This document shows positions 9,357-61,538 of a stretch of 64,000 nt of DNA, one piece after another (the first letter of the stretch is position 1; every line of letters begins with the position of its first letter). Where the stretch lies: IMG/VR virus record IMGVR_UViG_3300017917_002838, positions 40,556-104,555 of that record; one strand, 5' to 3'. The position numbers and the translations under genes are program-made. The notes beneath the pieces are model-generated. The model had not been told where the DNA came from. It saw nothing but the letters and a program-made list of their open reading frames with translations, and searched no databases. The stretch is from a virus.

Positions 9357-10082
9357 CTATTCTTTAGTATTTTCAATTTTTTTATGAACCTCAGCTATCC
9401 ACTGCACATAACCGTCCGTCCAATTTTGACTGCCATAAATATTTCTTGCAGCTATGTGATGGAATAGTCTCCAGTTTTCTCCACCATAGCAAAAGAATTT
9501 CAAGTCTTTAGATTTTTCTAAATTATTGTATTCTTCATAGTCCTTAATTAAATCATATTTTTTAGAAAACGTCAAGGACTTAGTTATTCCTGCTGTCCAA
9601 ATTGTTGGTCCAGTCATGGCATGCACAAAATGTGGATTAGAATAGTCTGGATCTTTAAATGCTTCTTTAATTAAATCTAAAACATTTTTAATTATTTGAT
9701 TTCCTGGTGTTGCAGCAAATAACCATTGACAAAAATCTATTTCATGTTCTGGGCAAACAATTAGGGAATACTCGTCATTTATCCATGTATCTATTGGTTT
9801 TAAACATATGCAATCTAGATCTGCATATATTCCACCATATTTATAAATAACCATGTATCTCCATATATCACCTCTCATTACGCCAATAGGTGCAGTTATA
9901 AATATATTATGCCATTCTTCACCAAATTCTTTTAAAACAAACTCGGCGGCCTGAGTATCGTCCATATATACGTATTTATATTCAGGATTTAAACTCTTCC
10001 ATGTTTCTGTTGTTTCTTTAATATAGTCTGGTAGAACATCATAAGGGTCTTTGTATGTTTGCCAAATTATTCTAGGAATCAA
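9357..10082 (-). CDS. Glycosyltransferase with DXD motif (Gly_transf_sug / OCH1-like)
   Basis: The 241-residue enzyme starts with MIPRIIWQTYKDP, typical of the Gly_transf_sug family. The core APIGVMRGDIWRYMVIYKYGGIYADLDC (about residues 83-110) contains the nucleotide-sugar-binding DLD motif. Such enzymes transfer hexoses from sugar nucleotides. The acceptor is unknown: host wall glycan, virion protein or modified DNA base are all possible, the last suggested by the Nmad1-like gene 8 bases downstream. Confidence 0.88.
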   Translation of the reverse strand: MIPRIIWQTYKDPYDVLPDYIKETTETWKSLNPEYKYVYMDDTQAAEFVLKEFGEEWHNIFITAPIGVMRGDIWRYMVIYKYGGIYADLDCICLKPIDTWINDEYSLIVCPEHEIDFCQWLFAATPGNQIIKNVLDLIKEAFKDPDYSNPHFVHAMTGPTIWTAGITKSLTFSKKYDLIKDYEEYNNLEKSKDLKFFCYGGENWRLFHHIAARNIYGSQNWTDGYVQWIAEVHKKIENTKE

Positions 10083-10641
10083 TTTTAAAATCCTTTACTA
10101 CTCTTGGGTCTATCCACCAATCTTCAAACATCCTATTTGGATCTCCATCATTAATATTTTCAGCAATCAATTCATATCCAAGCAATTTAAATATACCATG
10201 AGATTCAGCCTTGATTAAAGAGTTATCTGGGCTTGCATATAAATCATGTTCATATGTTATAGTTGAAAATCTATACTCGAGTAAAGGTAGCTTATATAAA
10301 GCTTTAAGAGTTTGTTCGGCAGGCTCTATATCTAATTGCAGATAATCAATTTGTTTTGGAAAATTATTATCTTTAAAATATTTTAAATAATTAAAATCTG
10401 TTGCGTCTGTAGCAATACATTTATTTTTTCTAGAATTATTATATATCTCAACCAATTCTGAATTTATCTCAAAACCTACTCCAGACCAACCATATTCTTC
10501 TTCTAACAATAAAGTATTATTCCATGCGACTGGATCGTTAGATCCTATTTCTACATAGAATCCATTTCTTTTTTCTTTTAAAGCATTTAATACAAAAGAT
10601 TCCTGGTGTGCTTGGCTTTGGCTCTTTTCAAATATCCTCAT
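10072..10641 (-). CDS. FkbM-like SAM-dependent methyltransferase
   Basis: A 189-residue Rossmann-type protein with a SAM-binding segment NGFYVEIGSNDPVAWNNT (about residues 25-43), a second motif GVGFEINSELV and the LQLDIEPAEQ strand typical of the FkbM clan. The start overlaps the upstream HTH micro-gene by ATGA and the end overlaps the glycosyltransferase by 11 bases. FkbM enzymes methylate hydroxyls of sugars or small molecules. The target here is unknown. Confidence 0.8.
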   Translation of the reverse strand: MRIFEKSQSQAHQESFVLNALKEKRNGFYVEIGSNDPVAWNNTLLLEEEYGWSGVGFEINSELVEIYNNSRKNKCIATDATDFNYLKYFKDNNFPKQIDYLQLDIEPAEQTLKALYKLPLLEYRFSTITYEHDLYASPDNSLIKAESHGIFKLLGYELIAENINDGDPNRMFEDWWIDPRVVKDFKIDS

Positions 10642-10784
10642 CTTTTTTTAATCAATCCAAACTTTTCTAAATATCTCTGTATGGTCATTGCAGAGACTCC
10701 ACACTCATCAGCTATTTCTATAACTGTTTTCTTTTGAACAACGTACCTTCTGTATAACCAAACCTCGCTTTGATATAGTTTCAT
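10638..10784 (-). CDS. HTH micro-protein (48 aa)
   Basis: A 48-residue protein that is essentially one helix-turn-helix: VIEIADECGVSAMTIQRYLEKFG. It resembles resolvase or sigma-region-4 type HTH units. Both ends use ATGA overlaps with the flanking methyltransferase genes, which supports it being translated. It may regulate DNA or act as a recognition module for a partner enzyme. The frame is intact. Confidence 0.75.
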   Translation of the reverse strand: MKLYQSEVWLYRRYVVQKKTVIEIADECGVSAMTIQRYLEKFGLIKKR

Positions 10785-11527
10785 GATTTTCTCTTTAAAA
10801 TTATATTAAAAACTTTTCTTGGAATATTGTTAATATCAAATCTATCTCCATTTAAATAAAAAATATCATAATCAATATATATTTTTTGTAAAAATTTATT
10901 ATCATTATGTCCAACTTCCATCATAATTAGTTTACATTTTTTTGTATTATTATGCATTCCATCAAATACTTTTTCCTCATGTCCTTCTACATCAATTTTA
11001 ATAAAATCTGGAGTTTCATCATAAATGCTATCCAATCTTATTGCTTTTACCTTTTCTACTGTATATTTATCATTGGGCTCATTATTATAAAAATCTAATT
11101 TTATGATTGTTGATGCTCCTATATTTTCAAAAGGGATAAGCATTGTGGCTTCGTAATTTTTATTAGAAAGAGCATATTGATACATTGTTATTTTGCCTGC
11201 ATGATCATAATTGTTTAATTTTGTAGAAATTTGATAATTATCATTTAAATGTTTTAATGGTTCAAATGCTATTACTTCTCCGGTTTTTCCAACAATTCGT
11301 GCCATAACTTCTGTAAAGTATCCATTATTAGCTCCAATATCTAGACATTTCCAACCAGGTTGTATATTTTTTATCATCCATTCAGTTTCTTCTTGCTCCC
11401 ATATTCCTAATTTTTTGCAACATGCTTGTACTGCATTATCACTTTCATCTCCCGTATAAACAAAAAATGAGTTTAAAACTTTTGAAAATCCTCCAAGATT
11501 TACAATTTCTCTATTTTGTGTATTCAT
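10781..11527 (-). CDS. FkbM family methyltransferase
   Basis: The 248-residue protein has SAM motif I in CLDIGANNGYFTEVMA (about residues 60-77), GEVIAFEPL, the ATMLIPF segment and TPDFIKIDVEGHEEKVFDGM, the hallmark of FkbM methyltransferases. The length is normal. It begins at the stop of the RuvC-like gene (TAATG) and runs into the HTH micro-gene. Together with the second FkbM-like gene and a glycosyltransferase it forms a transfer cassette. Confidence 0.88.
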   Translation of the reverse strand: MNTQNREIVNLGGFSKVLNSFFVYTGDESDNAVQACCKKLGIWEQEETEWMIKNIQPGWKCLDIGANNGYFTEVMARIVGKTGEVIAFEPLKHLNDNYQISTKLNNYDHAGKITMYQYALSNKNYEATMLIPFENIGASTIIKLDFYNNEPNDKYTVEKVKAIRLDSIYDETPDFIKIDVEGHEEKVFDGMHNNTKKCKLIMMEVGHNDNKFLQKIYIDYDIFYLNGDRFDINNIPRKVFNIILKRKS

Positions 11528-12093
11528 TATCTTTCCGTAAGTTGTTTATATCCATAAAATGCTATGCCAACCGAATCAGCAACATCAAAATCATCCAAGT
11601 TAATATTAAAGTTTGTATTTGCCCAGTTTACAGTTCTTTGCTTTCTTATCTCTCTCATTTTTGCTTTATACCAAGATTCAGTTTTACCTGGATTTTCAAA
11701 CTTTAATTTGTCTTTTTCCATCTTTGTTGGATTTTTATTTCCAATGTGTGATTGCCAAGCTGTTGGAGATATTGTAATTACTTTAGCCCCGCTAGACATT
11801 AGCTCGGCAATAACAACTCCATATACATAAGATAATTTAATAACAGCATCTGGAGACTTTACAAAAACAGCTCCTTCTACAACAATATAATCTGATTCCA
11901 ATTGCGGAAGCATTGCCTTCATTTTTATTTTTGCGTCATATATTTTTTCATATATGTCTGCACCTACAAATTCTATTTTACCCCAACGAACCGGTTTATT
12001 GTTTTCTATCAGACAAAAAGCAACTGAATTTGTAGAAGCATCTATGCCCAATACACGTTGCGCTTTTACTTTATGTAAACTAGCTAATGTCAT
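11527..12093 (-). CDS. RuvC-like Holliday junction resolvase
   Basis: A 188-residue protein with an RNase H fold. Three acidic positions are visible: GIDASTN (D about 18), DYIVVEGAVF (E about 74) and DDFDVADSVGIA near residue 172. It would cut four-way or branched DNA before packaging. Start overlaps the zinc-finger gene by 14 bases. It belongs to the recombination block with the Cas4-like nuclease and RecA. Confidence 0.85.
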   Translation of the reverse strand: MTLASLHKVKAQRVLGIDASTNSVAFCLIENNKPVRWGKIEFVGADIYEKIYDAKIKMKAMLPQLESDYIVVEGAVFVKSPDAVIKLSYVYGVVIAELMSSGAKVITISPTAWQSHIGNKNPTKMEKDKLKFENPGKTESWYKAKMREIRKQRTVNWANTNFNINLDDFDVADSVGIAFYGYKQLTER

Positions 12094-34363: not shown

Positions 34364-34821
34364 ACTTCTTCCAGAGAGATAGATACTTCCCAAAATTCTT
34401 GTGCGGGATCAGTTGATCTAGATTTTACATTTCTTTTAGATAACGTACAGCTAAATGAAGATATAAACATTGTCAAAGATTCCGTTCTTGTTGGACTATA
34501 ATATATAGTCAGTGTTACTGGAGAAAGGCCAGAAGTTTCGTATAAATATCTTAGGTCTAGTGCTCCGTAACCAGTGTCTAATGTCATTGTACTATATGAT
34601 GGCAAAACTGACCAGGAGGTAGAAACTGTTTTTTTATTGGCTACAATAAATTTTCTCATGGAGCCATCTGCCATTCTATCTGATTTTTCTATTCGATTAT
34701 AGCCAATATCAATTGGCGCTCTATTGTGTTCACTTAATTTATTTGAATTAATATATAAAGCTGATCCAGCTGGCAAAGTAATCTTGCTGGCACTAGAGGT
34801 TACTGGTGTTTCGTAGCTCAT
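34360..34821 (-). CDS. Distal tail protein candidate
   Basis: A 153-residue beta-rich protein located just after the tape measure, with GYNRIEKSDRMADGSMRKFIVANKKTVSTSWSVLPS and a C-terminal strand set (FWEVSISLEEV). Size and place agree with a Dit-like ring protein or a tail completion protein. It overlaps the tape measure stop by 4 bases. Assignment rests mainly on order. Confidence 0.65.
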   Translation of the reverse strand: MSYETPVTSSASKITLPAGSALYINSNKLSEHNRAPIDIGYNRIEKSDRMADGSMRKFIVANKKTVSTSWSVLPSYSTMTLDTGYGALDLRYLYETSGLSPVTLTIYYSPTRTESLTMFISSFSCTLSKRNVKSRSTDPAQEFWEVSISLEEV

Positions 34822-37800
34822 GATTTAAACCTTCTATCTGAACCAATCTTTATATTTGAAAGTTTGGTGTTACTATTTATAATACCAACTATATCATTCT
34901 TTAGCTTATCTTCCATATATGGCGACAACTCTCCTTGGAATATAAAGTTTAATGTTGTAGCTCCATAAGAATCTGATTCTACCATTCCGCCATAAGCATA
35001 TCCTATTCTATTTGTAGGGACTTTATATACTGCACCGCCAACACGATATGAAGGCATTGACATATTAGATGACATTGATGGGTTTACGTATCCGCCCATT
35101 CCCATTCTGTTAATATTATTTAAGAATGGAACACCAACTGCTGCCGTTGCTCTAGCATTAACAACAAATTCTCCATTTGAGAGCAAGGCTGGAATTGAAT
35201 CTGATGTTCCAGTTCCTGGACCATAAATAGGTCCGCCCATGGCTGATCCTTTTGGTCTTCCTCCGGTTCCAACATCTCCAACACCAGGTCTATTGGTATA
35301 TGCTCCTTTTCCTCCACTTTGATATTCTGGTCTTTCAACAGCTTTAACAGATTTACCATTAACAGTTGCACCTTCTGGAATTTTTCCAGTTGTAATTATG
35401 GTTGCTGCTGTTACAAAATCTGTTGCAGCAGCTTTAATGTCTGAAGCACCTTGAGTAAAATTCTTTTGAGCTTCTACACTTAATTCAGAAGATGCCCTAT
35501 TTCCTAGCGCTGCTATCTTAGATTGAAGATCCGTTGAAACTGTTAACTTTCCTCCGCCTCTTGCAGCCATTCTATTTTCTTCAGTATTAGCAATAACGCC
35601 AGTTCCCAAAATTGATTCTACTGCGGCGTTTAGATCTTTATCTTTAAGTGATTGAACACCTTTAATTGCTGTTTCCATCTGACCCATAAATGCTTTTTGA
35701 TCAATTTGCCCTAGTTGTCTTGCTGTGAGTGCTTGAGATATAAGACCCATATACATTTGAGCCTGAGAAGATTTTTGCTGATTATTTGCAGCAGATTGTT
35801 GCATGGCAACAATTTCTTTTTCTTGCTTCATCTTTTTTTCATTAAGCTTATCAATTTTTGCTTGTTGTTCTTCTAGTTTGCGTTGTCTCTCATCTTCAAT
35901 TGCTTGTAGAGCAAGTTGTTCCTGACGCTCCCTAGCAGCATCTTGAATCCTTATTTGAGCTGATGCAGCAGCCTCTTCATTTCCATTTGCTATAGCATTT
36001 CTATATTCAATATCTAGTAAAGATATTTCAGTCTTGAAATCACGTTCTGCTTTTTGTAGCTCAAGTGCTTTCTTTCTGGCATCCGCCTCTTTATTAATTT
36101 TGTCAATAATTTTTTGAATAGCGTCTGCTTGTTTTTTATAAGCTTCTTCGCTACTTTGAGCGGCTTTTTGTATAGATTTAGACGAATTAGACCATTTCTT
36201 TGAATAGTTATCAATTGCTGTATTTAAAGGACCAAATGATCCTGTTTTTAATATTGATGCTGATGCTGTTTCTACGCTTGATTGATATTTTGCTAAAGAA
36301 ATTGCAGTAGCTGCATCTAATTTAGATACCTCATCGCCCATTCCAGCAAGTAGTAATTTAGATTTAGCATAAACGCTTGCTAGGTTGTCAGAAGTATTAA
36401 GTACCTGACCAAGTTCTTTATTTTGAGCTTGTATTGCTAAAAGTTGTTCATTAGTTAAATTTTTATTTGCGCCTTGTGTATTGGCAATTGTTTGAAGTTG
36501 TGTATTAACTGCCTCTTGTGCGGTAACAATTTTTCCTGTAGCATCTTTTGTACCAATTGAAGCTTTTTCTGCTTCTAATAAAGCATTAACCATAGACATA
36601 ATTCCGGTTGCAGCTTCTTCAGAATTGGAATTTACAGAAGACATTTCTGTGGCAGTTATTCTAACTTTTGCTGCAGCAGCAGTTGCCTTATCTGTAATAT
36701 CTGCAAAACCCTTATTTCCTATAGCACCTACAGCCATGGTAGCTTTTTCAGAAGCTTTAATAATTGCAAATACTTTATTTGTTGCTTCTTCTGCGCTCAT
36801 TCCACCGGCAATAAAATCGGCTTTCATAGATTGAGCTAATTGATTAACGTTAGAAGGATCTATGTTATTAAATAAGTTAACAAGATCTGGCATATTTTTC
36901 TTTGCATCTTCTATTGCAGTTTTTAATTCTTTTATGCTTAGTGTTAATCCTCTAAATCCAGTTTTAGTATTTTCGTTATAAGCTGCTAAACCTGATGCCT
37001 TAAATGCATCTGCTGCATCTTTGGCAGACTTTAATCTATCGGAAAGAGAAACAATTTCTATTCCAGCCTTTTTAGCTTGTTCTCCGGTAAGTCCAAAAGA
37101 AGCTCTGTTTGCTTTTCCAACCTCTTCTGCATGTTTTTTCATGTCTAAGAATTTTTTGCCTAACCATACTACTGCAGTAAGTATGGCTCCTGGCAAGGAT
37201 AACATTTTTAATAACCTTATAACTTTAAAAACTACAACACTCATGCTTGTCATTCCTTTTAGTGCTGTTCCTAATTGTGGTAAAAATGCTGGAGCCATAC
37301 TTAATGCCATTCCACCAGCCATCATAGCTGTTCCACCGGCACCACCCATTTGACTTCCAGCTGTCATCATTCCCATTCCAGCCATTCCAGCCAGCATTCC
37401 ACCATTATCTTTTCCATAATTTTGCATTCTTTTTGCAAGTGCTTCTCTTCTGGATCCAGCTGCTGGAGGAGGTGGTAAAAATCCTGCTCTTGTTGTTAAA
37501 AGTTTTTTCCATTCTGTTTTAGTTTGAACAACTGTTCCGAGAGGACCTTCAAATGTTTCTCCTGCTGCCATTGGTCTATCTCGCAGTCTAGAAAGATCTT
37601 TAAATCCAGCTAAATAATCTTTTGTTTTTGAAGCAGCTAACTTTGCAGATTCTCCAGACTTTAGTATAGCTGCTCTACTTTTATCTATTGCATTAGATAT
37701 TGCTTTACTAGAAGACTCATATGATTTTTTAATTGAATCATTTATTGCTGCTATTCTATCTTTTGTAGAATTTGCAGCTTGTAATAATCCAGTGTAAGCA

Positions 37801-40800
37801 GTTGTTGTAAGCTGGTTTCCCATTCCACTTGTTCCAGTAAGTGCTCCCATAGAATAATCTGGCATAGGTGTAAAAGTGACTTGTGATCCTCTTACTTGTA
37901 AATCTGAAGGTCCCGCTCCTCTAGTGCCATAACCTCTAGTTTTTCCTGGAATAACTTCTCCTGCTGCCATTGCTGCAGCTTCTTGTCTTGCATTAAATTC
38001 TGCTTCCTGCATAGCACGTTTTGCTGGATTTCCAGAAAGACCTTGTCTCTTTTTTCTTACTTGACCAGCTTTAGCATATTTTTGAACACCAGGAATTATT
38101 GTTCCAGAAGTATTTGGTACAAACATCTCTGGTCCGTTTTCTCCAACTACATATGCTCCTCCAGCGCTAACTCCACCACCCATTGCTCTATTGCCAGACA
38201 TAGGTCCAGAAATAGTTTCAATTCTTAATCCGGTTGAATCGGCTGCAGTAATTCTAAACTTTCCACCAAAATAAGACTCTTGTTCATTTACAGCAACTTT
38301 TCCTTGAGGTGTGCCAAATTCTAAGTCTGGAACTATTTTAGAAATAGGAGTCATACCTCTATTTTTAACATCTGCCATTAAATAGAAATCGCCAAATCCT
38401 CTTGCTACTTGTGGATCAGAACTCCATGAAGACCTTCTCATGATGAATTCTTTTCCTATCAACTTTGAAAAATTTCCAGTAGCTTTTGCCATTTTAATTT
38501 CATTCATTAGCCACTCGGGAAGTGGTTTCATTGCAGTTGATGAAGCTAAACTTATTCCTCTAAAGAATGTTCCAGAACCTTTAGTTCTTGCTGCAAGCAG
38601 AGCGGCAACATGGGAAGGTTCTCTCATTATGTCATATGCGCCCTTTGCATACATCTCTGCAGCATATCTTGCTCTTTCTTCTGCAGAACCAGTTGCCCCA
38701 GCCATTACGTTAATTGTTGATTTTTGTCTAAATGGATTCCAACTTGGTCCATATTGTATAGCAGCAGGATATGCTCTATTCCTAACTGTTACTGGGGTCA
38801 TGTATTTTCCAATATTTAATGGTCCATGTAATGGGTCTTGATTACTACTGTCTACTCCACGAACTTTACCCCATTTTGACATTATCTTGGCTAATCTTGA
38901 TGCAGCAATTCCTGGAATTCCTCCACCACCCATGTAATTATTTAATGGAATCATTCCGCCGAGATTGCTCTTTCTAATTACATTTCTTGTTTTTAAAGAT
39001 TTTATTCTACTTTTCTTTGCCCCATTAGATATCATTACCTCATCAATAAATGGTATAAAATTTTCAAATTGTATATCTCCGCCAAAATCTCCAATTAGCA
39101 GGTCGTCTTTGTCTGATAAATATTTTTTTATCTGTTTGTCTATTTCTTTTTCTGCTTTAGCAAATTTACTTTGATCGACTCCTGCCATCCTAAATAAATT
39201 ATCATATTTGCCATATCTTCCTAAATTTCTTGCAATAAAATCTGAAACAAGTAAATTGTTTTGATTTGCTTGTTTGTTTGATCGTTCATCATAGTCAACA
39301 GTATATTTACTTACATATCTTTTATTTCCAACAATTCTTGCTTTAGTTAGATGAGTTGCATTTGTTGGAGTAGTTCCAGAATAACTAAGTCTTGGAAACC
39401 CATTTGATTCTAGTATTGAAGAAAGTTCTCCTCTAGAATCTAGATGACCCCATTCTAAAGTTTTTGTGCTTCTAGCCCTAGACCTATCTAAATTAAATCC
39501 ATAATTTTGAATAACTTCAGCAGCCTTTGATCTTTGATTTAATGGTAAAGACTCTAAATAATTTTGTATAGCATTTCCAGTATTATTTCCTCTAGTAAGA
39601 ATTGGATACTTATTACCAAAAAGATATCTAAGAGAAGTAGCATCTCTTCCTCTCCCGGCAAATCTAGATGCAACAATTCCTCTAAGAATCCTAGCGATAC
39701 CACCTACATTCATTCCTGATCCTGGAGCCTGCTTGTTATCATTTATTGCCATTAAAAGTGGAAGATTTTCTGCTGTTGCTTTTCTGTTTACAACAAATTC
39801 TCCTGGAGTAAGCATCGCAGGAACTACGTCAGCATTTATATTTGGACCTGGAACAACAGAAGGACTTTGATAAATTTGTCCTCCTTTATTTCTATATTGG
39901 AATCCTGAAGCTTCTCCTGCTATTCCAAGATTTTCAGAAAAAGGACCATAAAATCTTCCAGCTCTATCTTTTCTCAACAAAGACTTGCCGTTAAATGTTA
40001 CTTTGCCAGAAGGAGATCTTGAAATAATTTGTTGGTTTGTTCCAGGAACCATTCTTAATCTAGAAACATTTATTCCACGAGAAACAGCCATAGACTCTAA
40101 TTCTGCTAGCAGTGCTCTGTTTGCCGCTTCTATTTGAACCTGAGCCTGTTCTGCAGTAATGATTCCTTGCTGTGCTTGAGTAGCTATTGTTTTTGCAGCA
40201 TTTGCAGCATTTGTTGCAATTGCTCTTATTCCAGGAAGAATGTCATCAAACTCTTGTAAGAATTGAGTTGGAAGCCTTCCAGTCATATTTAAAACATTTA
40301 AAGCATTTTCTAATTCGGCTTTTGTTTTTGTTGCCATAGTTGTAAGCAATGCTTGGTATCTTGCATATTGCTCTGTTGAAATTGATGCTGATGCACCTTT
40401 TAATGCGGTAACTCCTTCCACCATTGGAGTTCCTGTGGTTCCTAAAGGTTGTGGTCTAGTTCCCCAACCTTGATTTATTCCTCCGACAAAAGGAACTGAC
40501 GCATAGAATGTTTGTTTTTCTAATTCTTCTGGAGTCATTCTTGCTTGTGCAAGTAAATGAGCTATATTGGATTCTGGAATTACACTTCCAGATTCGCCCA
40601 TTATATTAGCTCTTCCAGTAGCTCCTGATGTTCTTGTAATTGTTGATGGAACAACTTGATTCAATGCAGCTAAAGATGCTCTTAAATTATCTACAGCAGA
40701 TTTTAATGCTGTAGCTGCTGCTGCATCAGAATATAAAGTTTGTCCAAAACTTTCTGCTGCAGCTTCTGCTGCAACCATGTCTGGAGTTAATAATTTAAAT

Positions 40801-42542
40801 CCTTTTGCGCCAGAGAAAAATGCTCTTAAGTGTGAAAGACCTTTAAATACATATCCAAGGAAGTTAGCAAAAACACCTGTAAGCATAATTATTGGACCAG
40901 TTACTGCAGTAACACCACCTAAAATACTTAAAAACTTTTTAACTGGCTCTGGTAATTTATTAAAGAAATTAATAACTTTGTCTGCAACATTAATTAGTTT
41001 TGTTGCAATATCTAAAAATGATTCTCCTACTGTTGCTAAATCTGCCCTTAATCCTTCAATTGCTCTTCTATATCTACCAGAAGCAGATTCAGTTACCATC
41101 GCTAATTCTCGATCAGCAATAGCACCTATTTGTTGAGTGCTTGCTTTCATTAGATCTAGAACTTGTAAAGTTTGGCTGCCTTGTCTTCCAAGATTATCAA
41201 ACAAAGCACCCATTCTTGCAAATTGATATTTACCAAATAGTTGTTCTAACGCCTGCTGTTTTTGTAATGGATTTAATGTATCTAAAGCACTTTGTAATGC
41301 TAAAATTGTGTCTGTTAAATTTCCTGCATTTTTTGTAACTAGTGCTTCTAAATCTATGCCAAATCCTTCAAACATATCCTTGGCTCTATTTGTTGGATTA
41401 ATTAATGAACCAAGTGCTGATTTCAAACCGTTAGCAGCTGAAGCTGCATCAATTCCGCCTTCACGCATAGCTGTTAGATAAAGAGCCAAATCTTGAACGC
41501 TTCCGCCAAGACCTCTGATAATTGGTCCAGCTTTTGGAATTGCATCTACTAAGTCATTTAGAGTTGTTGAGGTTTGGTTTTCAACTGCGTTAAGAAAGTT
41601 AATTGAATCTGCTAACTCAGTTGTATTTTGCTTAAAAGCATTCTGAATTGCAAGAGTTGCTTTCATTGCTTCTTGTCTATCTACTTCACCAAGAACTGAA
41701 AGTCTTGTTGTTTCTTGTAATGATTTTAATAGGTCATTACCTTGTTGACCAGTTGCTGCAATATCTGCTGCCAAGGCAATGGTATCTTTGAATGATACTC
41801 CATATGCAGATGACAAATCCTTGGCAGTTTTAGATACATCGTCTCTTACTTTACTTAGTTCCTGTGAAGAAGTAGCTGCAAGTCCGCCGTAAACTTTTGT
41901 TAATCTTGTTAGTTCACGATCTGCTTGATTGAATGCTTCTGCTGCAGCTTTACCAAATGCTGCTATAGGAACAGTAAGACCAACCGTTAGCTGTCTACCG
42001 GCCCATTGTGTATTTTTACCCCAGTTGATGAGCTGTAGAGATCCATCTTGCATAACTTTATTCATAATAGACAGCTCTTTATTTGCTATAGCTGTTTTAT
42101 TTTTTAATTCGTCTATGCCAGTAGGAATATTAACTGCAAACTGCATCTGTCCTCTAGCATTTTTTCCTAGTGGTTGCAGTATTGCTTGTTGTAGAGCTAT
42201 TTGTTGTCTGGCAAGCTCTTTAACCATACTATTAGAACTTCTATGATATTCCTGCCAAGTTCTATAGTAATCTCTTAACTTTAATCTTCCGGCATCAAGA
42301 TTCTTTCCAAATTTATCTATGTCTCTAGATACCGCTACAAATTGTGTACTAAATTGACCGCTATTACTTAAGATTGAAGAAAAATTAGCATTTGCAGTTT
42401 TAATGTTTCTAGTTAATGCTGCATCTGTTAAACTAAATTGTTTTTGTAAAGCAGAAAGCTGAGTTATTGCAGACTTTACCTGGCTTAACAAACCAGAGAA
42501 ATCTGCATTAGCAGTAATTTGCGTATTAATTATTTCGGCCAC
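34818..42542 (-). CDS. Tape measure protein with inserted ADP-ribosyltransferase-like domain
   Basis: The 2574-residue protein starts at GTG. The TP901-type tape measure core (about residues 200-500, with TIALAADIAATGQQGNDLL and SQTSTTLNDLVDAIPKAG-like helices) is followed by a hydrophobic helix set near 580. Loop motifs TPGEFVVNRKAT (about 914) and SNGEFVVNARAT (about 2455) and a VVGENGPEMFVP loop (about 1471) flank inserted regions. One insert (about 1320-1430) has FFRGIS, SSWSSDPQVARGF and NEQESYFGGKF, the R-S-E pattern of mono-ADP-ribosyltransferases. The C-terminus (about 2150-2330) is coiled coil. The protein sets tail length and is likely ejected into the host. Confidence 0.93.
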   Translation of the reverse strand: MAEIINTQITANADFSGLLSQVKSAITQLSALQKQFSLTDAALTRNIKTANANFSSILSNSGQFSTQFVAVSRDIDKFGKNLDAGRLKLRDYYRTWQEYHRSSNSMVKELARQQIALQQAILQPLGKNARGQMQFAVNIPTGIDELKNKTAIANKELSIMNKVMQDGSLQLINWGKNTQWAGRQLTVGLTVPIAAFGKAAAEAFNQADRELTRLTKVYGGLAATSSQELSKVRDDVSKTAKDLSSAYGVSFKDTIALAADIAATGQQGNDLLKSLQETTRLSVLGEVDRQEAMKATLAIQNAFKQNTTELADSINFLNAVENQTSTTLNDLVDAIPKAGPIIRGLGGSVQDLALYLTAMREGGIDAASAANGLKSALGSLINPTNRAKDMFEGFGIDLEALVTKNAGNLTDTILALQSALDTLNPLQKQQALEQLFGKYQFARMGALFDNLGRQGSQTLQVLDLMKASTQQIGAIADRELAMVTESASGRYRRAIEGLRADLATVGESFLDIATKLINVADKVINFFNKLPEPVKKFLSILGGVTAVTGPIIMLTGVFANFLGYVFKGLSHLRAFFSGAKGFKLLTPDMVAAEAAAESFGQTLYSDAAAATALKSAVDNLRASLAALNQVVPSTITRTSGATGRANIMGESGSVIPESNIAHLLAQARMTPEELEKQTFYASVPFVGGINQGWGTRPQPLGTTGTPMVEGVTALKGASASISTEQYARYQALLTTMATKTKAELENALNVLNMTGRLPTQFLQEFDDILPGIRAIATNAANAAKTIATQAQQGIITAEQAQVQIEAANRALLAELESMAVSRGINVSRLRMVPGTNQQIISRSPSGKVTFNGKSLLRKDRAGRFYGPFSENLGIAGEASGFQYRNKGGQIYQSPSVVPGPNINADVVPAMLTPGEFVVNRKATAENLPLLMAINDNKQAPGSGMNVGGIARILRGIVASRFAGRGRDATSLRYLFGNKYPILTRGNNTGNAIQNYLESLPLNQRSKAAEVIQNYGFNLDRSRARSTKTLEWGHLDSRGELSSILESNGFPRLSYSGTTPTNATHLTKARIVGNKRYVSKYTVDYDERSNKQANQNNLLVSDFIARNLGRYGKYDNLFRMAGVDQSKFAKAEKEIDKQIKKYLSDKDDLLIGDFGGDIQFENFIPFIDEVMISNGAKKSRIKSLKTRNVIRKSNLGGMIPLNNYMGGGGIPGIAASRLAKIMSKWGKVRGVDSSNQDPLHGPLNIGKYMTPVTVRNRAYPAAIQYGPSWNPFRQKSTINVMAGATGSAEERARYAAEMYAKGAYDIMREPSHVAALLAARTKGSGTFFRGISLASSTAMKPLPEWLMNEIKMAKATGNFSKLIGKEFIMRRSSWSSDPQVARGFGDFYLMADVKNRGMTPISKIVPDLEFGTPQGKVAVNEQESYFGGKFRITAADSTGLRIETISGPMSGNRAMGGGVSAGGAYVVGENGPEMFVPNTSGTIIPGVQKYAKAGQVRKKRQGLSGNPAKRAMQEAEFNARQEAAAMAAGEVIPGKTRGYGTRGAGPSDLQVRGSQVTFTPMPDYSMGALTGTSGMGNQLTTTAYTGLLQAANSTKDRIAAINDSIKKSYESSSKAISNAIDKSRAAILKSGESAKLAASKTKDYLAGFKDLSRLRDRPMAAGETFEGPLGTVVQTKTEWKKLLTTRAGFLPPPPAAGSRREALAKRMQNYGKDNGGMLAGMAGMGMMTAGSQMGGAGGTAMMAGGMALSMAPAFLPQLGTALKGMTSMSVVVFKVIRLLKMLSLPGAILTAVVWLGKKFLDMKKHAEEVGKANRASFGLTGEQAKKAGIEIVSLSDRLKSAKDAADAFKASGLAAYNENTKTGFRGLTLSIKELKTAIEDAKKNMPDLVNLFNNIDPSNVNQLAQSMKADFIAGGMSAEEATNKVFAIIKASEKATMAVGAIGNKGFADITDKATAAAAKVRITATEMSSVNSNSEEAATGIMSMVNALLEAEKASIGTKDATGKIVTAQEAVNTQLQTIANTQGANKNLTNEQLLAIQAQNKELGQVLNTSDNLASVYAKSKLLLAGMGDEVSKLDAATAISLAKYQSSVETASASILKTGSFGPLNTAIDNYSKKWSNSSKSIQKAAQSSEEAYKKQADAIQKIIDKINKEADARKKALELQKAERDFKTEISLLDIEYRNAIANGNEEAAASAQIRIQDAARERQEQLALQAIEDERQRKLEEQQAKIDKLNEKKMKQEKEIVAMQQSAANNQQKSSQAQMYMGLISQALTARQLGQIDQKAFMGQMETAIKGVQSLKDKDLNAAVESILGTGVIANTEENRMAARGGGKLTVSTDLQSKIAALGNRASSELSVEAQKNFTQGASDIKAAATDFVTAATIITTGKIPEGATVNGKSVKAVERPEYQSGGKGAYTNRPGVGDVGTGGRPKGSAMGGPIYGPGTGTSDSIPALLSNGEFVVNARATAAVGVPFLNNINRMGMGGYVNPSMSSNMSMPSYRVGGAVYKVPTNRIGYAYGGMVESDSYGATTLNFIFQGELSPYMEDKLKNDIVGIINSNTKLSNIKIGSDRRFKS

Positions 42543-55957: not shown

Positions 55958-57793
55958 TTAAACTGCACCCATTAGAATCATAAATTCATCTGGTAAACCA
56001 ACTAAGTTAATTCCGGTTGCGTATGTAACTGTTCCTGAAAGAGTTACGTTTCTAATTGTTCCTCCAGAAAATGTACCTTGATGAGTCATTGTTCCAGAAA
56101 GTGTTACATCTTTTACTGTTCCACCTGAGACAAATGCTGAGATAACTGTTGCATTTGTTCCGGTAATTGTACCGGAAAGTGTTGCATTAACATATGTTGC
56201 ATTTGTTCCGGTAATTGTACCGGAAAGTGTTGCATTAACATATGTTGCATTAGTTCCAGAAATTGTACCGGAAAGTGTTGCGTATGTAATTGTACCACCA
56301 GAAATAGTACCATTATTTGTAAACGTTCTTCCATTATTTAAAGAAACAGTATCAAATGTTCCTGAAACAGAAGATATTGTTGTTGAAGTAATTGTTCCAT
56401 AAGTAATTGTTGGATATGTTATGTTAGCATTAGTTGCACTAATCATTCCGCTTAATGTTGGACCAACAATTGTTCCACCGGAAATTGTTGGGCCATCTAA
56501 AGTTGTATAATAAGAACTTATTGTACCTGATAATGTTGAGCCAACGATTGTTCCACCAGAAATTGTGCCATTATTGGTAAATGTTTTTCCGGAGTTTAAT
56601 GTAACGCTTCCAAGCGTTCCACTCAATGCTGACAGCGTACCTCCAGAAATAGTTGGAGCATCTAGAGTTCCACCTGATATTACACCTTGATTTGTCATTG
56701 TTCCAGAAAGTGTTACATCTTTTATTGTTCCACCCATAGCACCATCTATTGTGCCATAAAATGAACTTGTTCCGGCAATTGTTGTACTTGAAATAGATCC
56801 ACCAGAAATTGCTGGGCCTACTATAGTTGAACCAGTTGCAGCAATTGTTCCAGAAATTGTTGGACTTGTAAGAGTTTTATTAGTAAGAGTTTGCGATGAT
56901 TGATCGTCTACAAGAAAAACCGACACTCCTGTATAACTTGGGAAAAATATAGATTTACCTACTCCAGTCCATCCTATCGATGGATTTGATTGAGGAAGTT
57001 TAATTGATGGTTCATTTATAGTTGAACCTGAAATAGTTGAACCAATAATTGTTCCACCTGAAATAGTACCTACGCTTATAAGGCCAGAGTTTAAATTTAA
57101 AGTTCCGGATACTGTTGTGTTTGCATTAAGTGTTCCATAAACTCCAGTTGTTCCAGTAATTGTTGAGTTCCATATATATGGATTTCCTGAAATTGTTCCA
57201 CCGGAAATTGTTGCTGAGTTAACTGTTCCTCCGGAAATTGTTGGGGATACAATTGTTGCAGTAGAAGCGCTAATAGTTCCAGAAAATGTTGGGTACGTTA
57301 ATGTTGGATATGTTATTTCTGCTCCATAAGCTCCCAAAATTCCGTTTAATGTTGCGCCTGAAATTGTTTTGTTTGCTAATGTCTGTGATGCAGAATCCAA
57401 TATAACTGTTCCAGAATCATCTGGAAGATATATTATTCTATCTGCTGTAGGGTCTACAACTGTTAATGTTGTTTCCTTAGTATTATCTGTTGCACCTTCA
57501 AAAACAAAAGCATTTTGAACATTTACTTCTGTGCTATTAATTGTTGTTGTTGTGCCTAATACTGTTAGATTTCCGGAAACTGTAAGGGCTTCTGATACAG
57601 TGGTAATTCCAGATGTTCTAGAAAGAGACTCTACGCCACCGGCATAAGACAATGAAGACCAAGCTGCTGAACCATCACCAATTTTAAACTTTCCAGTATC
57701 TGTTTCAAAACCGATTTCACCAGAAGAAAGAACTGGGTTACTAGAGGTCCACTGTGATGCGGTTCCTCTTCTATTCTGTATCTTAATTGTCAT
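55958..57793 (-). CDS. Tail fibre with SGGTI beta-solenoid repeats
   Basis: A 611-residue protein. The N-terminus (TIKIQNRRGTASQW, then SSGEIGFETDTGKFKIGDGS) matches the Mtd-N type attachment domain of phage fibres. Most of the rest consists of repeated SGGTI, LSGTIS and NATLSGTI units predicted to form a beta-solenoid or trimeric fibre. The DNA has a 48-bp tandem repeat at 56148-56291. A segment near residue 250 is nearly the same as one in the next fibre gene. Receptor binding is inferred. Confidence 0.8.
   Translation of the reverse strand: MTIKIQNRRGTASQWTSSNPVLSSGEIGFETDTGKFKIGDGSAAWSSLSYAGGVESLSRTSGITTVSEALTVSGNLTVLGTTTTINSTEVNVQNAFVFEGATDNTKETTLTVVDPTADRIIYLPDDSGTVILDSASQTLANKTISGATLNGILGAYGAEITYPTLTYPTFSGTISASTATIVSPTISGGTVNSATISGGTISGNPYIWNSTITGTTGVYGTLNANTTVSGTLNLNSGLISVGTISGGTIIGSTISGSTINEPSIKLPQSNPSIGWTGVGKSIFFPSYTGVSVFLVDDQSSQTLTNKTLTSPTISGTIAATGSTIVGPAISGGSISSTTIAGTSSFYGTIDGAMGGTIKDVTLSGTMTNQGVISGGTLDAPTISGGTLSALSGTLGSVTLNSGKTFTNNGTISGGTIVGSTLSGTISSYYTTLDGPTISGGTIVGPTLSGMISATNANITYPTITYGTITSTTISSVSGTFDTVSLNNGRTFTNNGTISGGTITYATLSGTISGTNATYVNATLSGTITGTNATYVNATLSGTITGTNATVISAFVSGGTVKDVTLSGTMTHQGTFSGGTIRNVTLSGTVTYATGINLVGLPDEFMILMGAV
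56148..56291 (-). repeat. 48-bp tandem repeats in the fibre gene
   Basis: Three units of 48 bases starting at 56148, 56196 and 56244. The first two are nearly identical and the third is diverged. Each encodes 16 residues of the type SGTITGTNATYVNATL. The unit number could change by slippage without altering the reading frame. Confidence 0.82.
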
Positions 57794-57822: not shown

Positions 57823-57851
57823 ATTATAGCATGTACTGATTATCAACTCAA
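57823..57851 (-). promoter_or_regulatory. Promoter of the SGGTI fibre gene
   Basis: TTGAGT (57846-57851), 17 bases, then an extended -10 TGCTATAAT (57823-57831) on the minus strand. The leader carries AGGAG before the ATG at 57793. Confidence 0.6.
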
Positions 57852-60800
57852 GGCACCGGCATCCATGGTAAAGCTAAATGATGAGGTATTTGGTGCTCCT
57901 CCATCAACTATTGAGTCAAATGATGTGGTTGACGGGCTTCCAGCCTCTACTGAAGCCGAAGACATAACAAACCATATTCCACCATAAGCTACATTTAAGG
58001 TGAAATTTTCATAATTAAAATAAATTTGTCCGTCTGCCGGATTACTTGGATCTTGATTTGTTACTGCTACAAATGGGTTTGCCCAAGATGCCGAACTTCC
58101 ATTTGTAGTTAAATATTTTCCAGAATTTCCACTCTGGGTAGGCAGTGCGTCTACTGATTGCCAAGAAACATCCAAACCGTCTGTAGTTAAATACTTTCCG
58201 TTATTTCCACTTTGGGTTGGATATACCGCTTTTCCATCTAATTGTGTTTGAATATTAGATTGGGCTCCATCAAGGTAGCTTATTTCTGTAGCAGATATTG
58301 TCTTAGATGAGGCAACAATAGTTGGATCTGTAAAAGTACCACCAGAAACTGTTGCATTATTTATAGTTGAACCAGATAAAGTTGAACTTAAAATATTTGT
58401 ATTGTTTAATGTTCCGCCAGAAATAGTTTTGTTTAAAAGTGTTTGATTTGATTCAGTATCTGCAATATAAATTGAAGATCCTGTATAACTTGGGAAAAAT
58501 ATAGATTTGCCTACTCCGGTCCACCCTATTGATGGATTTGTTTGAGAAAGTTTGATTGATGGCTCATTTATTGTTCCACCTGAAATAGTTTTATTTGATA
58601 GTGTCTGAGTATCAGTTGTACCAACAATGTCTCCGGAAACTCCGTGTGTAGATAAATCATTAATATGATTTGTTAAATCTGTAGATGTTGCTTTATCATT
58701 TAATTGTGTCTGAATGCTAGATGTAACACCGTCTACATAATTTAATTCAGTTGTAGTAAGAGTTGCACCGTCAAGGATATTTATTTCCGATGCTGATGCT
58801 GTTACACCATCTAAAATATTAAGTTCAGCTGTACTTGCAGTAATTCCGTCTAAAGTATTTAGTTCAGATGTTGAAAGTGTTGCTCCGTCTAGAATATTTA
58901 ATTCAGAGGCAGATACTGTAGCCCCAGTAAGAATATTTAGTTCTGTAGTTGAGGAAGTAATTCCATCTAGTGTATTTAATTCTGCAGTAGATGCTGTAAT
59001 TCCGTCTAATGTATTTAATTCAGAGGCGCTTGCAGTCAAATCTGAGACATTTGCAACTTGAACTGTAATTGTATTATCTGAATAAGAAATTGTCTTATTG
59101 CTAAGTGTTTGTGCTGTTGTTTTATCTACTGTTGTTGCAGTATCTATATTGAATTGTGAACCACTTAAAGTTAATCCGGTTCCTGCTGTATATGTTCCAG
59201 CACCAGAAAACTGTGTAAACTCAATATTATCTGAACCAATTGTTGAAACAATATTTGTTTGAACCCATCCAGTTTTTCCATTTATTGAACCTAATTGTAC
59301 AAATACAAAGTCTCCGGCATCTATTTCTGTAATGCTGTTGTAGTCTGATGCACGAGTAGGTGCGCCTGTTGCTTCAACAATATAAATGCCATTTTCAGAT
59401 TTTGTTGACTGATTCTTGATAAGAATTCTATCACCTGTTACAAGTGTGATTCCATCAATTACGTCTCCGTTTTCAAAATCAGATGCTAATGTTTTGCTTT
59501 CAGTTGTAGCTACTCGAACTGCATCGTGAACATTTAATCCTGTTGTAGCTGCATCTACATAAGCTTTTGTTGCTGCATGTAGATCATTTTCTGGGGTTGC
59601 TGATAGAGTTAGGAAACCTGTCATGGTTCCACCGGCTAAATCTAATTTATCATCTAATGCATTTTGAGTTGCTGTTGAAATTGGTTTATCTGCATCAGAA
59701 GTATTATCTACATCTGAAAGTCCTACATCAGATTTTGTAAGACCTGTTGGGTTATCGATATGTGGAGAGGTAAGAGTCTTATTTGTAAGAGTTTCTGCTC
59801 CGTCAATTGTTGCAAAATCTCCATCTGATAAAGCTGTATTAAATTCAGCTACTGTACCAGATAGATTATTATCAGCTAAATCAATTTCTTTATTTGTTAA
59901 AATTTGAGATGTGTTTAGATCAACTGTTGCATTTGTATCAATTGATATGGAACCAGAATTTGAATCATAAGATATACCATTCCCGGCAGAAATTGAATCA
60001 CGTGCACGTTGTTCTGTAAAATATTTATTTGTAGGGGTTAATGTTTCTTGAACATCATCTGTATTCAAAGTTACACTTGATCCAAGTGCTATTGAATATC
60101 CATTTACAGTAATAGAGTCATTATCTAATGCATTATTTGGTATATTTTGAAGAGTATTATCTCCGCCATTAATTGTTTTATTAGTTAAAGTCTGTATGTC
60201 TGAAGTGCCAACAACATTTCCGTTAATCCCGTGAACATTTGAAGAATATCCATCGTGTGTCGAAACTTCAGAAGATGCTGATCCAGCTGCATCATACCAT
60301 GTATCAACTGTATCTCTATCTACAACAATTTGACCAGAAATAATTTCAAGACCTGTGCCTAAGTCAGCTGAAATATCTCCTGTAGCGCCTAATGTAATTC
60401 CGTCTCCGCCATTTAGTGAATCCCAAACACGCTGTTCTGTAAAATACTTATTTGTTGTACCCTCATCAAGATCGTCTGTTGTTGAGTCGGCAACTCCATT
60501 TTCTGCTGTTATTGTTAGTTGACGATTTGCCTCATCGTAAGAAATTGAAATATTTGACTGTGTTGAATTTTCAAGAATATAACCTGCGGCATCTTTTGCT
60601 CTATTATCAGTATAATATTTATTTGTTGTGCCCTCATCAATATTATCAGTACTATATGATGCAGCTGAACCCAAATGGATCTCGTAACCATTGATTGTTA
60701 CTGAATTATTTTCTAATTTATTATTTTGAATAGAACCAGCAAGCATTGCATTTGTAACTGTACCCAAATCTGCTGCTGTTATTGCAGTTCCAGAAATTTT

Positions 60801-61538
60801 TCCTTTATCTATTTCTGCAGAAGAACTAATATCAGCATTAACAATTGTTCCATTTGCAATTTTTTCAGATGTTACTGCACCATTATTAATTTTATCTGTA
60901 GTAACAGCAGAATTTACTATTTTATCTGTTGAAACAGTATTATCTGTAGGAGTTCTTGTATCAGAAAGTCTTGAATCATTTGTATATACAAGATTTGCTG
61001 TATTAGAAATTCCATGAATATTTGTTGTATCATTTTCATGGTTTGAAAGATTTGTGGCTACACTTGTAAAAAATGATGGATCATCATTTACTGCAGCTGC
61101 TAATTCATTTAGTGTATCTAGAAGTCCTGGAGCCCCATCAACTAAATTTGTTACCGCTGTAGTAATATCTGATGTAAGAGCTATTGTTCCTGAGTTGTCA
61201 GGTAAATTAATTGTTCTATCTGCGGTTGGATTTACGGCTAAAGTAACTTCATAATTATTAGTTGTTAAACCTGGAATTATTAAATTACCGTCGGCATCTA
61301 AAGTTGCAACACCATCTTCTACGCCTTTTTCGGCAAGTGGTATGAAGTCTCCTAATGAGTTTTCTAAGCCTTCTGGAGTAACGTTGGCATATTTAGTGAT
61401 GCTATTCCAATTTGAACCATTACCAATTTTAAATTTTAGGGTATCTGTTTCAATACCAATTTCTCCTGAAGAAAGGATTGGGTTATTACTGATCCAATTT
61501 GTAGATGTATCTCGCCTAAGCTGAATTTTAGTTGCCAA
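57843..61538 (-). CDS. Large tail fibre with LNILDG repeats
   Basis: The 1231-residue protein starts at TTG with a strong GGAGG. Residues 1-50 repeat the Mtd-N-like attachment motif (KIQLRRDTSTNW, SSGEIGIETDTLKFKIGNGS). It contains many fibre repeats: NKTISGG, TSDIQTLTNKTI, DEGTTNKYYTDNRAK-like and a block of eight 14-residue units (SELNTLDGITAS type) near residues 835-940. It ends with VDGGAPNTSSF and TMDAGALS. It is probably a long trimeric fibre that binds the host. Domain boundaries are approximate. Confidence 0.82.
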   Translation of the reverse strand: MATKIQLRRDTSTNWISNNPILSSGEIGIETDTLKFKIGNGSNWNSITKYANVTPEGLENSLGDFIPLAEKGVEDGVATLDADGNLIIPGLTTNNYEVTLAVNPTADRTINLPDNSGTIALTSDITTAVTNLVDGAPGLLDTLNELAAAVNDDPSFFTSVATNLSNHENDTTNIHGISNTANLVYTNDSRLSDTRTPTDNTVSTDKIVNSAVTTDKINNGAVTSEKIANGTIVNADISSSAEIDKGKISGTAITAADLGTVTNAMLAGSIQNNKLENNSVTINGYEIHLGSAASYSTDNIDEGTTNKYYTDNRAKDAAGYILENSTQSNISISYDEANRQLTITAENGVADSTTDDLDEGTTNKYFTEQRVWDSLNGGDGITLGATGDISADLGTGLEIISGQIVVDRDTVDTWYDAAGSASSEVSTHDGYSSNVHGINGNVVGTSDIQTLTNKTINGGDNTLQNIPNNALDNDSITVNGYSIALGSSVTLNTDDVQETLTPTNKYFTEQRARDSISAGNGISYDSNSGSISIDTNATVDLNTSQILTNKEIDLADNNLSGTVAEFNTALSDGDFATIDGAETLTNKTLTSPHIDNPTGLTKSDVGLSDVDNTSDADKPISTATQNALDDKLDLAGGTMTGFLTLSATPENDLHAATKAYVDAATTGLNVHDAVRVATTESKTLASDFENGDVIDGITLVTGDRILIKNQSTKSENGIYIVEATGAPTRASDYNSITEIDAGDFVFVQLGSINGKTGWVQTNIVSTIGSDNIEFTQFSGAGTYTAGTGLTLSGSQFNIDTATTVDKTTAQTLSNKTISYSDNTITVQVANVSDLTASASELNTLDGITASTAELNTLDGITSSTTELNILTGATVSASELNILDGATLSTSELNTLDGITASTAELNILDGVTASASEINILDGATLTTTELNYVDGVTSSIQTQLNDKATSTDLTNHINDLSTHGVSGDIVGTTDTQTLSNKTISGGTINEPSIKLSQTNPSIGWTGVGKSIFFPSYTGSSIYIADTESNQTLLNKTISGGTLNNTNILSSTLSGSTINNATVSGGTFTDPTIVASSKTISATEISYLDGAQSNIQTQLDGKAVYPTQSGNNGKYLTTDGLDVSWQSVDALPTQSGNSGKYLTTNGSSASWANPFVAVTNQDPSNPADGQIYFNYENFTLNVAYGGIWFVMSSASVEAGSPSTTSFDSIVDGGAPNTSSFSFTMDAGALS
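58715..59036 (-). repeat. 42-bp repeats encoding LNILDG units
   Basis: About eight diverged units of 42 bases in one reading frame, each coding for 14 residues of the form TSELNILDGATLSA. They lie between spacer residues in the large fibre gene. Units differ mainly at Ile/Thr and Asp/Thr positions. Confidence 0.75.

What the first reader, a model, noticed from the sequence alone, without database searches (positions are those of the whole stretch)
38260..38640. ADP-ribosyltransferase-like domain embedded in the tape measure protein
About residues 1320-1430 show FFRGIS (Arg), SSWSSDPQVARGF (Ser-Thr-Ser type core) and NEQESYFGGKF (Glu-x-Glu at residues 1420 and 1422). This is the ordered R-S-E signature of mono-ADP-ribosyltransferases such as exoenzyme-type toxins and T4 Alt/Mod. 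It stands between recurring GEFVVNRKAT and VVGENGPEMFVP loop motifs, as if inserted as a cassette. The tape measure is probably ejected at infection, so the domain could modify host proteins or NAD use from the first moment. The signature is seen; the function is inferred.
Basis: partly seen in the sequence, partly recalled or inferred. Interest (0 to 1): 0.85.

Follow-up and report, generated by a model that had tools for sequence, protein, structure and literature searches.

The report
ADP-ribosyltransferase cargo inside phage tape measure
A virus of bacteria carries, in the middle of the long protein that sets its tail length, what looks like an intact protein-modifying enzyme of the kind found in bacterial toxins; related viruses swap it for an unrelated domain at the same spot, which suggests the tail delivers an exchangeable enzyme into the cell at first contact.

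Summary
The motif alone is weak evidence: loose versions are common in shuffled sequence. Relatives settle it. In 42 distinct homologous segments, all found inside tape measure proteins of uncultured phages, R, S-x-S and E-x-E are invariant wherever the residues are present. An AlphaFold model (27 sequences, pLDDT 79) matches only ADP-ribosyltransferases among its top 50 PDB hits (C3 exoenzyme E=4.5e-5, Certhrax, XopAI, iota Ia, Tre1-type), and its best named viral hits are mostly phage ADP-ribosyltransferases. It is a cassette: 70 related tape measures carry a different conserved domain (kinase-like, weakly supported) in the same slot, none carry both, and a tree of the N-terminal core forces at least four exchanges. 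Near-identical tape measures differ sharply only in this domain. Cultured Streptomyces relatives lack the insert (about 800 aa shorter). dN/dS is 0.07-0.27. Best reading: a catalytically competent mono-ADP-ribosyltransferase carried in the tail tube and ejected with the tape measure to modify host protein. Fold and catalytic residues are well supported; activity, delivery and target are inferred. Head-packaged phage ADP-ribosyltransferases are known; in a tape measure I found none described.

The parts
34818..42542 (-). Tape measure protein, 2574 aa
   Evidence: PhageMin_Tail E=9e-30; PHROG tail length tape measure families down to E=1.7e-121
41232..41834 (-). PhageMin_Tail core (residues 237-437) within the conserved N-terminal core, residues about 1-840
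   Evidence: Pfam PF10145; core conserved in L002-L029
40869..40925 (-). Hydrophobic segment, residues 540-558, upstream of the cargo region
   Evidence: Kyte-Doolittle scan
38928..39722 (-). Upstream cargo domain d1, residues about 941-1205, function unknown; found before the ART in some relatives and before the kinase-like domain in others
38178..38846 (-). ADP-ribosyltransferase domain, residues 1233-1455
   Evidence: 27-row alignment, AlphaFold model, Foldseek PDB and BFVD
38559..38561 (-). Predicted NAD-binding Arg1328 (R of R-S-E)
   Evidence: invariant in 42 of 42 distinct sequences; in a strand of the model
38421..38429 (-). Ser1372-Trp-Ser1374 (S-x-S motif)
   Evidence: invariant in 41 of 41 sequences that cover it
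38277..38285 (-). Glu1420-x-Glu1422 (E-x-E; E1422 predicted catalytic)
   Evidence: both Glu invariant in 41 of 41 sequences that cover them
38028..38216 (-). Tape-measure linker with VVGENGPEMFVP, residues 1443-1505, bounding the cassette on its C-terminal side
   Evidence: phrog_30701 and phrog_1538; a GE.GPE motif follows the ART within 120 aa in 42 of 42 testable ART tape measures
37182..37238 (-). Hydrophobic segment, residues 1769-1787, downstream of the cargo region
   Evidence: Kyte-Doolittle scan

Best explanation
Residues about 1233-1455 of the tape measure protein form a catalytically competent R-S-E-class mono-ADP-ribosyltransferase (ExE type, hence most likely arginine-directed) carried as an exchangeable cargo cassette. 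It is built into the tail tube with the tape measure, leaves the tail with it at infection, refolds at or inside the host membrane between two hydrophobic segments, and ADP-ribosylates one or more host proteins before phage genes are expressed, much as head-packaged T4 Alt does. Shown: fold by prediction, catalytic residues conserved, purifying selection, cassette exchange. Inferred: enzymatic activity, ejection, refolding, side of the membrane, target.
For: R, S-x-S and E-x-E invariant in 42 distinct homologues (41 cover the last two motifs) that in the 27-row alignment are only 39-50% identical to the window. AlphaFold pLDDT 79.1, pTM 0.72, with R1328 inside a strand, S-x-S at the end of the next core strand and E-x-E at the start of a long strand, as in known ARTs. 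Top 50 PDB fold hits are all ARTs or ART-domain toxins, best E 4.5e-5, probability 0.99-1.00; the named top BFVD hits are mostly phage ARTs, several fused to minor capsid or portal proteins. Weak independent Pfam hits in single members to PF03496 (0.07-0.088) and DRAT (0.11). dN/dS 0.07-0.27 in 13 close pairs. Every ART copy found lies in a tape measure ORF. Repeated exchange with another domain in the same slot fits an effector whose target or counter-defence varies. Precedent for head-packaged phage ARTs (PMC5512222, PMC9503650) and for tape-measure-related proteins that deliver enzymatic domains from contractile injection systems (PMC11126660, PMC13277306).
Against: No significant match to a curated ART family by sequence: PF03496 only at E 0.07 in two relatives, none for the window; no PDB match by profile. 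TM-scores are moderate (mostly 0.38-0.46 by query length), with high rmsd. No experiment. A folded 25 kDa domain may not fit in the tail lumen, so it would have to travel unfolded. Host and target unknown.
Confidence: 0.6

Rival explanations
1. The domain is an active ART but acts in the producing cell: the tape measure is made in bulk late in infection, and the domain modifies host or phage proteins before tail assembly, or modifies the virion itself, rather than being an injected effector.
For: The tape measure is a late structural protein made inside the host before assembly (established knowledge); nothing computed here separates the two times of action.
Against: Fusion to the one protein that occupies the tail tube is a costly way to make a late enzyme; known virion-fused phage ARTs (MuF and portal fusions, T4 Alt) are read as injected effectors (PMC5512222, PMC9503650).
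Confidence: 0.17
2. The ART is delivered, but its role is counter-defence (modifying or sparing a defence protein, or consuming NAD or its signals) rather than Alt-like takeover of transcription.
For: The slot is polymorphic and exchanged repeatedly, as in an arms race; NAD/ADPr systems are central to phage defence and counter-defence (PMC9503650).
Against: No direct evidence; no Macro, NADAR or ADP-ribosylglycohydrolase family was recognised in the window proteins scanned.
Confidence: 0.15
3. It is a catalytically dead ART-fold domain used as a structural or adhesive module of the tape measure.
For: Folded inserts could serve as spacers (inference).
Against: All catalytic positions are invariant while the rest of the domain diverges to about 40% identity; a spacer would not need them. 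Tape measures without any such insert exist in cultured relatives.
Confidence: 0.06
4. Chance motif in a large low-complexity protein.
For: Loose R-S-E patterns are expected several times in a shuffled tape measure.
Against: 42 distinct conserved homologues and an ART fold with 50 of 50 listed PDB hits to ARTs.
Confidence: 0.02

Closest known systems
T4 Alt and Alt/VIP2-type ARTs fused to MuF or portal proteins (for example in Microbacterium phages Percival and Goodman)
   Same: Virion-borne phage ART with the R-S-E signature, presumed injected; BFVD fold hits include minor capsid and portal fusions (PMC7302621, PMC9503650).
   Different: Those sit in or on the head; this one is inside the tail tape measure. 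No significant sequence match.
C3-type exoenzymes, Certhrax and Tre1-type ART toxins
   Same: Fold: best PDB matches; same order R, S-x-S, [EQ]-x-E.
   Different: 12-17% identity, phage context; E-x-E instead of the C3 Q-x-E.
Polyvalent proteins of phages and conjugative elements
   Same: Large virion-delivered multidomain proteins with swappable effector domains including ARTs (PMC5512222).
   Different: Tape measures are not mentioned there (0 occurrences); this carrier is a tail-tube structural protein.
Tape-measure-related effectors of contractile injection systems (Tme, Sle1)
   Same: Tape-measure-like carrier with an exchangeable functional domain, packaged in a tail-like tube and delivered (PMC11126660, PMC13277306).
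   Different: Those are bacterial injection systems with a C-terminal variable domain; this is a phage with the cargo in the middle of the tape measure, and an ART.
Tape measures with cell-wall hydrolase domains
   Same: Enzymatic domain inside a tape measure; some of the long relatives here carry CHAP and LysM in their C-terminal parts.
   Different: Those act on peptidoglycan outside the cytoplasm; an ART needs cytosolic NAD.

Membership tests
ART superfamily, R-S-E class | ART fold | tested here: met
   AlphaFold model and Foldseek: 50 of 50 listed PDB matches are ARTs or ART-domain toxins, best E 4.5e-5; TM moderate
ART superfamily, R-S-E class | Ordered Arg, Ser-x-Ser, [Glu/Gln]-x-Glu, conserved among relatives | tested here: met
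ART superfamily, R-S-E class | NAD-dependent transferase activity | not testable with these tools
   needs an assay
Pfam PF03496 ADPrib_exo_Tox | Score above the gathering threshold | tested here: not met
   no match for the window domain; best 0.07-0.088 in two relatives
T4 Alt/Mod and VIP2 phage ARTs | Significant sequence similarity, or head or MuF location | tested here: not met
   no phage record with a genuine tblastn match; located in the tape measure
Phage tape measure protein | Tape measure family match and position among tail genes | tested here: met
   gene order as in Streptomyces phages of Stanwilliamsviridae
Virion-delivered effector | Protein enters the host on infection | not testable with these tools
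   inferred from tape measure biology

The most novel reading that the evidence does not exclude
Tape measure proteins of a large group of uncultured, probably actinobacterial phages are a modular effector-delivery platform: one slot in the middle of the tape carries interchangeable catalytic cargo (an ADP-ribosyltransferase or a kinase-like domain), preceded by a second variable domain, all ejected into the host with the tail tube contents before any phage gene is expressed.
Probability: 0.5. Interest if true: 0.87.

Novelty: new variant of a known kind. Interest (0 to 1): 0.74.

Why it matters
Phage ARTs were known as head-packaged or early-expressed proteins. An ART in the tape measure, exchanged with another conserved domain at one slot, would make the tail tube itself a route for enzymatic effectors, link phage tails directly to the tape-measure-like effectors of bacterial injection systems, and give a clean way to ask whether tape measures enter the cytoplasm: ADP-ribosylated host proteins would be the reporter.

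Tried and rejected
Sequence-only family searches (Pfam, PHROGs) and profile search of the PDB gave nothing significant for the domain. Single-protein scan of viral contigs with the window domain found nothing; anchoring on the tape measure N-terminus did. Weak tblastn hits in Streptomyces phages Psst1/Psst2, Scarif and Madamato tape measures proved to be chance: they lie in the C-terminal part without the ART motifs, and the ART profile does not hit Psst2 or Madamato. A scan of 84,980 prokaryote genomes found no relative. The kinase reading of the alternative domain is weak: all top PDB fold hits are kinases, but at E 0.014 or worse and TM about 0.2, and there is no Pfam match. The first-pass clustering of upstream slot regions merged everything into one group and was not used.

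Full report
WHAT THE WINDOW IS. The window is bases 40556-104555 of a 104.5 kb uncultured virus record. It encodes portal, prohead protease, tail, replication (DNA polymerase III alpha, RecA, primase, DnaB helicase) and three tRNA genes. The portal is 56-60% identical to portals of Streptomyces phages such as Muntaha and Yaboi, and the tape measure N-terminus is about 34% identical to the tape measures of that group, Stanwilliamsviridae. An actinobacterial host is therefore likely, but this is inference.

CHECKING THE OBSERVATION. The tape measure protein is window 42542..34818, 2574 aa. As a bare pattern they are weak evidence: a loose R...SxS...ExE occurs 5.5 times on average in shuffled versions of the protein, and the stricter [FY]RG form in 17 of 1000 shuffles. 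The window domain on its own matches no Pfam family.

RELATIVES. A scan with the tape measure N-terminus found 28 related loci. Ten carry a segment related to the window's, about 41-43% identical (one truncated). Two further scans widened the set to 42 distinct domain sequences, all inside tape measure ORFs, most of them 2300-4200 aa long where not cut by the contig end. R1328 and G1329 are invariant in 42 of 42; S1372, W1373, S1374, E1420, E1422, G1426, G1427 and F1429 are invariant in the 41 that cover them. Close pairs give dN/dS of 0.07-0.27 in the domain, so it is under purifying selection.

FOLD. AlphaFold2 on the 27-row alignment gives pLDDT 79.1 and pTM 0.72. Model residue 96 (R1328) lies in strand 88-98, 140-142 (SWS) ends strand 133-142, and 188/190 (E-x-E) lie at the start of strand 190-202: the order and placing known for R-S-E ARTs. 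All 50 listed PDB matches are ARTs or ART-domain toxins: C3 exoenzymes (E 4.5e-5), a Listeria ART-ARH toxin pair, Certhrax, XopAI, C3larvin, iota Ia, an ART toxin/immunity pair. Matches among predicted viral structures are led by phage ARTs, minor capsid and portal fusions and VIP2-like proteins. TM-scores are moderate (at most about 0.5) and sequence identity is 10-19%. Individual relatives hit PF03496 and DRAT only at E 0.07-0.11. So the domain belongs to the ART superfamily by fold and catalytic residues, not to a curated family by sequence.

IT IS A CASSETTE. (a) In 12 of the 22 core-anchored relatives that reach this region, the same slot holds another conserved domain, with invariant K, DxDL...N and D. 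A scan with it gave many more; over all loci there are 44 distinct ORFs with the ART and 70 with the other domain, and none with both. (b) On a tree of the N-terminal core, the ART and the other domain change places five times, at least four forced by starred branches. (c) L006 and L027 have cores 98% identical (dS 0.11) and tails 95% identical (dS 0.37), but ART domains only 72% identical (dS 1.14): the cassette was exchanged between nearly identical tape measures. (d) The window's upstream domain d1 occurs before the ART in L005, L091 and L103 and before the other domain in L124-L126 and L132. (e) Cultured Streptomyces relatives have tape measures of 2093-2105 aa: core (to about residue 650) and distal region (window residues 2075 onward at their residue 1290 onward) align with about 800 residues missing in between, and neither domain is detectable. 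(f) The linker with GE.GPE follows the ART in 42 of 42 testable cases and belongs to linkers found in other tape measure families.

THE OTHER DOMAIN. AlphaFold (pLDDT 83) and Foldseek give kinases only, but weakly (best E 0.014, TM about 0.2). I call it kinase-like and do not rest anything on it beyond its being unrelated in sequence to the ART and in the same place.

MECHANISM. Tape measures fill the tail tube and are expelled at infection (established knowledge). Hydrophobic segments lie on both sides of the cargo region (residues 540-558 and 1769-1787), and three long relatives carry LysM, two of them also CHAP, in their C-terminal parts. Since the tape measure C-terminus is thought to lie at the tail tip, the order on exit would be wall hydrolase (where present), membrane segment, cargo, core. 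This fits an enzyme delivered to or through the membrane, with NAD in the cytosol as substrate. The E-x-E form suggests arginine as acceptor (knowledge of R-S-E ARTs). Whether the domain crosses unfolded, stays tethered, or acts in the producing cell is not decided here.

LITERATURE. ARTs fused to MuF or portal proteins and head-packaged ARTs are established (PMC7302621, PMC5512222, PMC9503650, PMC7824862). The two surveys most likely to mention an ART in a tape measure contain no instance of the phrase, and full-text searches returned no paper that from its listing describes one; not every paper listed was read, and most subscription papers are not held. Tape-measure-related effectors with exchangeable functional ends are known in actinobacterial contractile injection systems (PMC11126660, PMC13277306).

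VERDICT. It is a new variant of a known kind: a virion-borne phage ART, in a new carrier and in an exchangeable slot.

Noticed in passing
window 38928-39722 (tape measure residues 941-1205): A second conserved cargo domain of unknown function, shared with L005, L091 and L103 upstream of the ART and with L124-L126 and L132 upstream of the kinase-like domain.
   Followed up: partly
L012:12967-14058, L020:12970-14040 and about 70 distinct tape measures: A widespread kinase-like domain occupies the ART slot; invariant K, DxDL...N and D; no Pfam, PDB-sequence or phage-isolate match.
   Followed up: partly
L039, L058, L117 (C-terminal parts of the long tape measures): Tape measures of 3200-4200 aa carry LysM, and in two of the three a CHAP domain, in the C-terminal part; the window's shorter tape measure has no such Pfam match.
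   Followed up: partly
L063 and L034: The tape measure core and the cargo part appear as separate ORFs in different frames; sequencing error, frameshift or true split not resolved.
   Followed up: no
window 55958-57793 and 57843-61538: Two proteins with an Mtd_N (major tropism determinant N-terminal) domain; no search was made for a diversity-generating retroelement.
   Followed up: no
window 9357-12093: Cluster with a sugar-binding glycosyltransferase, an FkbM methyltransferase and a weak RuvC-like match.
   Followed up: no
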